DNA of 64,000 bases from Paramacrobiotus metropolitanus (lineage: Eukaryota; Tardigrada; Eutardigrada; Parachela; Macrobiotidae): positions 310,001 to 374,000 of the forward strand of contig NW_026570226.1 of NCBI RefSeq assembly GCF_019649055.1, read 5' to 3'. Below, in pieces: positions 44,016-47,000 of this stretch. The notes under the pieces are model-generated. The model worked only from the letters and a program-made list of their open reading frames with translations. It made no database searches and was not told where the DNA came from. How positions within the stretch are numbered: the first letter of the stretch is position 1; each line of letters starts with the position of its first letter. The translations under genes and the position numbers were made by a program.

Positions 44016-47000
44016 CTATGACAACTTCATCCGCTTCCGGGCCGGACCAAATTGGCCCATGGAGCTCTGATGCTGGGCCAGCATACGGTAGGCCAGGTCG
44101 ATGAGATGCGGATGTGTCTTGGTCATCGACTTCCACTCATTCGTCTCCAAAACCTCAGCATTATGCCTATAATGAGTACATATCAGCCAGCTGAGGACAA
44201 TGACAGGTTATTGCTGCTACCAGACTCACTCAACGGAACACACACCGCACATGCACTACTGTCTAACCATCGGTCATCAACGCTTTTTTACGGCATCTCA
44301 CTTACCCGTTGATAAATTCAATCGCCGCGGCTTTCAGCTGTTCGGCACTGTGCATGTCGGCAAGGATCAACGTATCGGTAACGTTTTCAACTGAAAGATT
44401 ATTCCATAAGGCTTCTTCGCACTGAACCTTTAGGCGATCCAGCTGGTACTGCAACGCAATAATAAACATAACGCTGTAAAACTACGCTAACTGCAGACGA
44501 AAAGAAATTACCAGTTTCGGATCTGGTTCAAAATATTATTAACAAGAACACGTATAATGAAAATTAAAATATAAAATTAGTAAAGCAAGTTACTGAGAGT
44601 CAACGAACGCATAATTCTGCCTGCAATAACTGTGGCTAGTATAGTACCAGTTATAGTATTGTGTCTACAAGTTTTCAGCCTATACACTGTCCTGTGCAAA
44701 TGCCAGTGCTCGGATGAACTTCGGTGGTCCGGGGCACAGGCTTCAAGGATAATGCTAGGAGGTTACCTGCGGTCGACTAACGTCGAAGCGGTTCGATTCC
44801 GCCTTCCGAGCGAATTTTTGCTAATTTATGTCAGCAAAAAATTATGCACTTCCCACAAATAAAATAGTCGTCAAAAAGATACAAAAAGGGAGATAAATTT
44901 TTAAAAAATTCTTACACTTGGTGGCTTTCTACAGAGGCGAAACTTTGAACGCATCTTAAAACGCATGACAACACACCACTGACACAAATGGTTTGGATGT
45001 GAAAAAAAAGCAAGTTAACCATGGCTGGAACAATTTGGAATTTCTAATCGCAAGTACCTTATCAGCCGCTGCCAATAAATCATCCGCCATTTTTTCCAAA
45101 TTTGGAGTTTTTCCAGTGTAAATAAATCTCAAAATCTCTTCCAACACGTCATCGTGGACATCATCAATGCGCACTCGATTTGTTTTGCTCTCTTCCAGCT
45201 CATGACCAAACATGGCTCCAAATACTTGAGATCGGCCTTCAAAAAAATGGAATATCCAAAATTAGTACTTAATATAAGCTAACCAAAAATAATTCACATG
45301 TCAACTTACAAGAAAGAATACTTTTGTGAGCTTTGAATTCCCGATTGGGCGTAACCAAAACAACATCCGTGAATAGATTATTATCCAAAGCACTGCTAAA
45401 ATCTTCGGATAGCCGGCAGTCAGGAATTTTAAAGGAAGTAATGTTGCTCACACCCGAAATATTGGTGGAGTCCGAAATGACGCTGACCTGTGTCAAATTC
45501 ACAGTCAAAGTTAGGCGCAGGAAAAACCAACAACAAATAATGGTAGAATACCTCGCAGAAGAGAGTGAGCTTATCATCTGGCAGTAAACCATTTGCTTCA
45601 TCCAGTAGGAAATCTCGACGAATAAACTTTTTGAATCCCCAATCTTTGCCTTGAACGAATCGATAAGCACGCTGACTTTCTATAAACGAAAATCACGTGT
45701 CCGCAATGCCTCAGGTAAAAAAATTTGGTGCAGTAAAAATTAATAAAATCTTAAGACTCGAACAACATTAGTCACGAGCAAAAGTCCATAATCAAGCAAT
45801 CGGTTTTACCAAAATCACAAACTATCAGTATCAGCCCGAATCAAGACACTCGCAAAACACTCACCCATGGCCCGCGTTTCTTCGCGTTTAGCGTTAAGGA
45901 TAGAGAATTTAAATTTGGCTCGCACTTCACTTTTGTTGCACGACACCAGGAAGAGGTACAAGGACAAATAATCCTTGCTTTCATCATCCAGACCTTTCGG
46001 ATTAACTCTAAGACACCTGAAAAGGCAAGAACGTTTCTTCAGTTCAAATATACGAATAATGATTCACACTTTTGCATACCATTTCAGTTTGTCATTTGCT
46101 CCCGCCGAAAACGTGGAACTCTTCAATACTTCTCCCATCTCTTCGCGACAGTATGAAAAATTGTTGATTGTCCATACATAAGAGAATTTTGCCACCTTAA
46201 TCTGCAAAAGAAAACACCAGATGAGTCTACGATGACAAGCTGATAATAGTAAATTAAGTCCAAACTGCGCAAAATATTCATATTTGATGGTCATATACAT
46301 TAACTGAGATAATCGTACTGTAGTTAGCGTACGCCTGACTGGTACAAAGTGTATCAACTTATTTGGAAAAAGGAAGTGTGAAAAAGGGGATAACCATACA
46401 CAACTGGATCAAAGTAACGGGGAGAAAAAACTGTGCGACCGCGTAAACGAGAACGGAGTGCGGCAACAAATGCAGGCCAGCGAACTTTACACATGGATGA
46501 GAACGCTTTTGTATCATACGTTAATTTAGTGTACAGCTCACAAACAGCAGCGCTGGAGTTTAGTTCACGTGCAGAGATCCAGTACTTCAGCGTATAATCG
46601 CTGTTTCAGTGTTTTCGACAGCTACTTCTCGAAACTCTTTTCAGACTTTCAAATTTCGTTTCAGTGTCGCTGGCACAATGAAAATTTAATGAGTTTAATG
46701 AGAAATTAAATGCATTATGCGACAATACTTAATCAAATACATATTTAAAGCAATTTGATGGGTAATCAAAAATTTCGTTCCTCAAATTTAGAAAACTTAA
46801 GTCTCAAATAAATCGACTACTAATTTGACAACTAAGTTGCTGGAGCACCGTTGTTTCTATCGGAACATCAGATAACAAGAATAAACTGGCGAAAGTTGGT
46901 TATAAAGTAGTTGGTAATAATTAACTAAGAAAATCTTAAAATCTAAAAGGCAAATCTCGGGGTATTAAACCATGGTACAATTTACGTGATAACTGATAAT

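What the first reader, a model, noticed from the sequence alone, without database searches (positions are those of the whole stretch)
44708..44812. Selenocysteine tRNA gene with an 18-nt intron at the canonical 37/38 site
Seen in the sequence: the gene matches animal tRNA-Sec over all arms (6-bp D stem, long variable arm, TCA anticodon), but GGATAATGCTAGGAGGTT is inserted between A37 and A38. Removing it leaves exactly 87 nt. Known: eukaryotic tRNA introns sit at 37/38 and are removed by the TSEN endonuclease; animal tRNA-Sec genes are normally described as intronless. Inference: selenocysteine insertion in this animal depends on tRNA splicing, and the unusual 9/4-type tRNA body must be accepted by TSEN. 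I cannot say whether other examples are already published.
Basis: partly seen in the sequence, partly recalled or inferred. Interest (0 to 1): 0.93.

Follow-up and report, generated by a model that had tools for sequence, protein, structure and literature searches.

The report
Tardigrade selenocysteine tRNA carrying an intron
In the water bear Paramacrobiotus metropolitanus, the one selenocysteine tRNA gene found is interrupted by an 18-letter intron that probably has to be spliced out before the tRNA can work; the same kind of intron was already published in a water flea, so this adds a second animal phylum rather than a new kind of thing.

Summary
Window 44708-44812 is a eukaryotic tRNA-Sec gene (Rfam RF01852, 64.4 bits, gathering 47) with an 18-nt insertion at 44747-44764 between A37 and A38; without it 87 nt remain. 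The host is the tardigrade Paramacrobiotus metropolitanus. No second copy was found in its 169.8-Mb assembly.

The insertion is very probably a real TSEN-type intron. The precursor's best fold extends the anticodon stem by a 4-bp anticodon-intron helix starting C32:G(-3), with a 3-nt bulge UU|A at the 3' site. Shuffled introns form that helix in 25 of 2000 folds, random window 18-mers in 6 of 2000.

The tRNA appears needed: the genome encodes SecS, eEFSec, and an SPS2 with in-frame TGA at the selenocysteine site, plus a weak, well-placed SECIS-like element.

Not unprecedented: both Daphnia pulex tRNA-Sec genes carry introns (25 and 16 nt) at the same place (Santesmasses 2017); a 2022 review calls that the only eukaryotic case annotated. 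This is a second animal phylum: new member of a known kind. Splicing itself is inferred, not shown.

The parts
44708..44812 (+). tRNA-Sec gene (105 nt including discriminator G73; 87 nt after removal of the insert)
   Evidence: RF01852 64.4 bits, E 8.2e-11, full model 1-91 over 44708-44811; only match found in own genome
44708..44746 (+). 5' exon: acceptor 5' strand, 6-bp D arm, anticodon stem 5' strand, loop C32 to A37 with anticodon TCA (44743-44745)
44747..44764 (+). 18-nt intron, GGATAATGCTAGGAGGTT; G(-3) at 44762 can pair with C32 (44741)
44765..44812 (+). 3' exon: A38, anticodon stem 3' strand, variable arm, 4-bp T arm, acceptor 3' strand, G73
44790..44800 (+). B-box-like GGTTCGATTCC in the T arm
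   Evidence: position; B-box consensus recalled, from no call
44815..44819 (+). T5 run, likely Pol III terminator
   Evidence: function is inference
44677..44686 (+). AGCCTATACA, TATA-like element ending at position -22; its AGCCTATA also occurs at a similar distance before one of four U6 genes (L009)
   Evidence: a type-3 Pol III promoter is an inference, and I saw no shared PSE-like motif

Best explanation
This is the functional, and as far as the assembly shows the only, tRNA-Sec gene of the tardigrade Paramacrobiotus metropolitanus. It carries an 18-nt TSEN-type intron at the canonical 37/38 position. Pol III makes the precursor. The end of the intron pairs with the anticodon loop (C32:G-3, U33.G-4, U34:A-5, C35:G-6) and extends the anticodon stem, leaving a UU|A bulge at the 3' splice site and A36-A37 unpaired before the 5' cut. 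TSEN (TSEN34 at the 3' site, TSEN2 at the 5' site) would cut both, and a ligase would join the halves to the 87-nt tRNA. That tRNA is then serylated and turned into Sec-tRNA by the PSTK/SecS/SPS2 route and used for UGA decoding with eEFSec. Shown here: the gene, the intron position, the pairing potential, uniqueness among what the searches scored, and presence of SecS, eEFSec, SPS2 with in-frame TGA, TSEN2-like and TSEN34-like genes. Inferred: transcription, cleavage, ligation and dependence.
For: RF01852 full-length match. Sole match in the own genome by covariance model (53 of 9082 candidates scored) and by DNA. The precursor MFE has the 4-bp A-I helix; its pairs have ensemble probability 0.69; 25 of 2000 shuffled introns and 6 of 2000 window 18-mers give it. 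[quoted passage not shown] In the human TSEN structure the A-I pairs form a 4-bp helix starting at C32, with three bases flipped out (PMC10539383, passages). Both arrangements fit here. SecS; eEFSec fourth domain; SPS2 reading TDLKG-TGA-GCKVP; SECIS_1-like element 24.2 bits about 0.13 kb after the apparent SPS2 stop, same strand. TSEN34-like L002 has Y/H/K in line with human TSEN34; two TSEN2-like loci. A tRNA in the same genome that I read as tRNA-Ile(TAT) has a 30-nt insert at 37/38, also with C32 and G(-3).
Against: No RNA reads were available, so cleavage and joining are not shown. The SECIS-like match is below Rfam's gathering score (24.2 against 35; E 0.25). One of the four SecS matches is reported with a TAG inside. 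For the tRNA-Ile comparator the A-I pair is possible by letters, but its probability in a constrained fold was 0.22 and the MFE lacks it. The RtcB ligase search (PF01139) did not complete (8 tries). An intronless copy in unassembled DNA, or among candidates not scored, cannot be excluded. PSTK, SBP2, TSEN54 and TSEN15 were not searched. The 4-bp helix was chosen as the thing to count after seeing the fold.
Confidence: 0.9

Rival explanations
1. The locus is a tRNA-Sec pseudogene with a chance insertion, and a functional intronless gene lies in unassembled sequence.
For: The assembly has 533 contigs and may be incomplete; 53 of 9082 candidates were scored in that search.
Against: The arms are intact and the match is well over the family cut-off. 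The insert sits exactly at 37/38 and makes the A-I helix that 25 of 2000 shuffles and 6 of 2000 random 18-mers make. No other copy was found by model or DNA, though the genome has genes that need a tRNA-Sec.
Confidence: 0.05
2. The 18 nt are an assembly or sequencing artefact in an ordinary intronless gene.
For: Raw reads could not be inspected.
Against: The insert is not a homopolymer, no direct repeat of 12 nt or more was found within 44400-45100, and it falls at the position used by eukaryotic tRNA introns with a fitting A-I pair.
Confidence: 0.02
3. The intron is not removed by TSEN: the 105-nt RNA works with an enlarged anticodon loop, or another nuclease removes the insert.
For: None found.
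Against: Decoding with an 18-nt insert next to the anticodon is implausible (general knowledge). The TSEN recognition features are met, and TSEN34- and TSEN2-like genes are present, with Y/H/K aligned in L002 and Y/H aligned to human TSEN2 in L059.
Confidence: 0.02

Closest known systems
Intron-containing tRNA-Sec genes of Daphnia pulex (Santesmasses et al. 2017, PMC5330540; passages read)
   Same: Animal tRNA-Sec; short intron one base 3' of the anticodon; G73; both copies reported for that genome have an intron
   Different: Crustacean, two copies, introns of 25 and 16 nt; here a tardigrade, one copy found, 18 nt. Daphnia intron sequences could not be compared (they are in a supplementary figure)
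Lokiarchaeota tRNA-Sec intron (PMC5330540 and PMC9499178, passages)
   Same: tRNA-Sec with an intron
   Different: Archaeal; 31 nt in the T arm, not the anticodon loop
Canonical eukaryotic 37/38 tRNA introns, e.g. the tRNA read here as Ile(TAT) in the same genome (L053)
   Same: Position 37/38, C32 with G(-3), A38 after the 3' site
   Different: 30-nt insert in a standard tRNA body rather than the 9/4 tRNA-Sec body; its A-I pair is not in the MFE

Membership tests
Eukaryotic tRNA-Sec | Full-length covariance-model match above the family cut-off | tested here: met
   RF01852 64.4 bits against gathering 47, model 1-91
Eukaryotic tRNA-Sec | 9-bp acceptor / 4-bp T stem, 6-bp D stem, long variable arm, UCA anticodon, G73 | tested here: met
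   Alignment, folds and coordinates; the acceptor has a U.U mismatch, a feature PMC9499178 calls conserved in eukaryotic tRNA-Sec
Eukaryotic tRNA-Sec | Organism has selenocysteine machinery and a selenoprotein gene | tested here: met
   SecS, eEFSec, SPS2 with in-frame TGA; SECIS-like element sub-threshold; PSTK and SBP2 not searched
TSEN-type (eukaryotic 37/38) tRNA intron | Insertion one base 3' of the anticodon | tested here: met
TSEN-type (eukaryotic 37/38) tRNA intron | Pyrimidine at -6 of the 5' site pairs with purine at -3 of the 3' site (A-I pair) | tested here: met
   C32 and G(-3), predicted probability 0.69; 27 of 2000 shuffles and 16 of 2000 random 18-mers give the pair in the MFE; rule from PMC8479045
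TSEN-type (eukaryotic 37/38) tRNA intron | Intron is excised and exons joined in vivo | not testable with these tools
   No RNA-seq or tRNA-seq held
TSEN-type (eukaryotic 37/38) tRNA intron | Host has TSEN catalytic subunits | tested here: met
   TSEN34-like L002 with Y/H/K aligned; TSEN2-like L055 and L059, found only at E above 0.001 in the genome search. TSEN54 and TSEN15 not searched; RtcB unanswered

The most novel reading that the evidence does not exclude
In tardigrades the whole selenoproteome is gated by TSEN splicing of one tRNA-Sec gene. The doubled TSEN catalytic subunits (two TSEN2-like and two TSEN34-like loci in this genome, one TSEN34 copy with substituted catalytic residues that a Hypsibius exemplaris protein shares) reflect a second or regulatory TSEN assembly that tunes this step, for example under desiccation or oxidative stress.
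Probability: 0.05. Interest if true: 0.75.

Novelty: new member of a known kind. Interest (0 to 1): 0.42.

Why it matters
It puts an intron-containing tRNA-Sec in a second animal phylum, in a genome where no other copy was found, so selenoprotein synthesis there should depend fully on tRNA splicing. It offers a natural substrate for asking how TSEN, whose recognition uses the acceptor stem, D arm and elbow, deals with the 9/4 tRNA-Sec body. [quoted passage not shown] Because the Daphnia precedent exists, it extends rather than overturns current knowledge. Whether the two animal lineages gained introns independently or inherited one remains open.

Tried and rejected
Second intronless copy: not found by covariance model or DNA. 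Pseudogene and artefact readings were rejected as above. A tRNA-Tyr comparator pattern gave 0 matches. Relatives of the tRNA elsewhere: 0 in genome contigs, 0 in viral contigs, and no match in plasmids to the 351-base stretch 44600-44950. By their descriptions these collections hold bacteria and archaea, viral contigs and plasmids, so the absences say nothing about other animals. U6 promoter comparison: 4 U6 matches (48 of 11080 candidates scored); a TATA-like 8-mer is shared with one of the four at a similar distance (L009); I saw no common upstream element. The one GPx region found reads as a cysteine, not a selenocysteine, form. The TRNT1 protein search did not identify the organism (799 matches, best 120 listed). 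COX1 (PF00115) and RtcB (PF01139) searches did not complete; SecS needed seven tries (unanswered; 35 answered). The RF00005 search scored 63 of 6550 candidates and is no survey of introns (60 matches, one of them 103 nt long, the others 71-83).

Full report
Observation. A scan of the whole window against Rfam gave one gathering-level match, RF01852 tRNA-Sec, 64.4 bits, model positions 1-91, with 19 residues where the model has one. The insert is GGATAATGCTAGGAGGTT at 44747-44764, between A37 and A38. Its borders cannot slide without changing the exons. Without it 87 nt remain and fold into the expected arms. The acceptor has a U.U mismatch, a feature that PMC9499178 calls conserved in eukaryotic tRNA-Sec (passage). 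There is one A.C mismatch in the anticodon stem.

Host. The UGT-like ORF at 53805-54902 matches Paramacrobiotus metropolitanus LOC129581608 at 100% identity over 99% of its length, listed on a contig of 3,161,911 bases, the length of the contig that holds the window. The assembly held has 169,799,020 bases in 533 contigs.

Is it the only copy? A genome search with RF01852 gave one match at E <= 0.001 (53 of 9082 candidates scored), and a DNA search with the gene gave only itself (1 candidate). An unassembled copy cannot be excluded.

Is the insert a real tRNA intron? [quoted passage not shown] In the cryo-EM structure of PMC10539383 the A-I pairs form a 4-bp helix starting at C32, with three bases flipped out (passages). 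Here C32 faces G(-3), and the MFE of the whole precursor contains a 4-bp helix of C32-C35 with G(-3)-G(-6) and the bulge UU|A. The four pairs have probability 0.69. In 2000 shuffles of the intron the A-I pair formed in the MFE 27 times and the helix 25 times; in 2000 random 18-mers of the window, 16 and 6 times. The register of the A-I pair was given beforehand by the rule, but the idea of counting the 4-bp helix came after seeing the fold. A 103-nt tRNA gene in the same genome, which I read as Ile(TAT) from its anticodon, has a 30-nt insert at 37/38 with the same C32 and G(-3). Its predicted A-I pair is weaker (0.22 in a constrained fold; absent from the MFE), so folding alone would not have found it.

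Does the animal need it? Yes, by inference from gene content. SecS exons are present (PF05889, 4 matches, best E 2.2e-70, one of them with a TAG inside), and so is the eEFSec fourth domain (PF21131, 2 matches). A selD-like gene lies on contig 5 (TIGR00476, 4 matches, each below the family's whole-protein cut-off). Upstream of those matches the same strand reads ...RLTNFTDLKG, then TGA, then GCKVPRAVLLKLL, at the site where SPS2 carries selenocysteine (the site is recalled knowledge). About 0.13 kb after its apparent stop, on the same strand, lies a SECIS_1-like element with AUGA, AAA and GA motifs, 24.2 bits, E 0.25, below the gathering score of 35. The one GPx region found is a cysteine form.

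Can it be spliced? A PF01974 search found two loci at E <= 0.001 and seven matches at E <= 10. Four of the seven are exons of two TSEN34-like loci, two are TSEN2-like loci, and in one (L058) I saw nothing TSEN-like. Sequence comparison with solved structures places L002 and L003 with Sen34 chains and L055 and L059 with Sen2 chains, besides archaeal-type endonucleases, one of which scores best for three of the four. The joining ligase RtcB could not be checked (search did not complete). TSEN54 and TSEN15 were not searched. PMC10539383 also says that eukaryotic endonucleases can splice a mimic with only the anticodon domain (passage), so the unusual 9/4 body need not be an obstacle.

Promoter. 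A TATA-like AGCCTATACA ends at position -22. AGCCTATA also occurs at a similar distance before one of four U6 genes. I saw no common PSE. A T5 run follows at 44815-44819. A type-3 Pol III promoter, recalled as typical of tRNA-Sec genes, is plausible but not shown.

What is known. Santesmasses et al. 2017 (PMC5330540; passages read) ran Secmarker on about 10,000 genomes and reported two Daphnia pulex tRNA-Sec genes with introns of 25 and 16 nt one base 3' of the anticodon, the first in eukaryotes. The main text does not contain the strings tardigrad, Hypsibius or Ramazzottius. A 2022 review (PMC9499178, passage) says that apart from Lokiarchaeota this is the only case annotated so far. Ten full-text searches listed no paper whose title or start of abstract describes a tardigrade tRNA-Sec or an intron-containing animal tRNA-Sec other than the 2017 work. 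One search listed 15 of its 33 papers. I read passages of six papers (PMC5330540, PMC8450103, PMC9499178, PMC10539383, PMC8479045, PMC3159098) and no whole text; most subscription papers, preprints and supplements were outside the search. The public annotation of this genome may already list the gene; I could not see it.

Verdict. The finding is real and the splicing interpretation is well supported by sequence. It is a new member of a kind published in 2017, in a new phylum. Arthropods and tardigrades, usually grouped as Panarthropoda (recalled), now each have such an intron. Independent gain is my guess, since the passages I read name no other animal with one, but the data here cannot decide.

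Noticed in passing
L003/L056 (G000:C45:835169-835690, +) against L002/L057 (G000:C45:460015-460590, +): Two TSEN34-like genes. The L003 copy (annotated LOC129591295, P0155) has F and Y where human TSEN34 chains have the active-site Y and H (Y247 and H255 by PMC8479045), while L002 keeps both. A Hypsibius exemplaris homologue, P0156, has the same F and Y, so a probably non-catalytic TSEN34 paralogue is shared by two tardigrade species.
   Followed up: partly
L055 (G000:C3:3225062-3225133, -) and L059 (G000:C2:2224310-2224381, +): Two divergent TSEN2-like loci, each with a Y..H motif like the TSEN2 active site and a lysine downstream, so both catalytic subunits of the tRNA splicing endonuclease appear doubled in this tardigrade.
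   Followed up: partly
L016 and L019 (G000:C5, - strand, TGA at 380420-380418; SECIS-like 373823-373759): SPS2 gene with in-frame TGA and a sub-threshold SECIS_1-like element in its presumed 3' UTR.
   Followed up: partly
window 53373-54902 (-): UGT gene whose named relatives are other tardigrade UGTs and then plant glycosyltransferases (34 matches in all); a possible old horizontal transfer or deep paralogy.
   Followed up: no
window 57714-63080 (+): GC-richer block of long ORFs, one with a retroviral-type aspartyl protease domain (gag-asp_proteas); looks like part of an LTR retroelement. Described only.
   Followed up: no
window 23155-24888 (-): Gene for a CCA-adding enzyme (TRNT1-like), by chance about 20 kb from the tRNA-Sec gene.
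   Followed up: no
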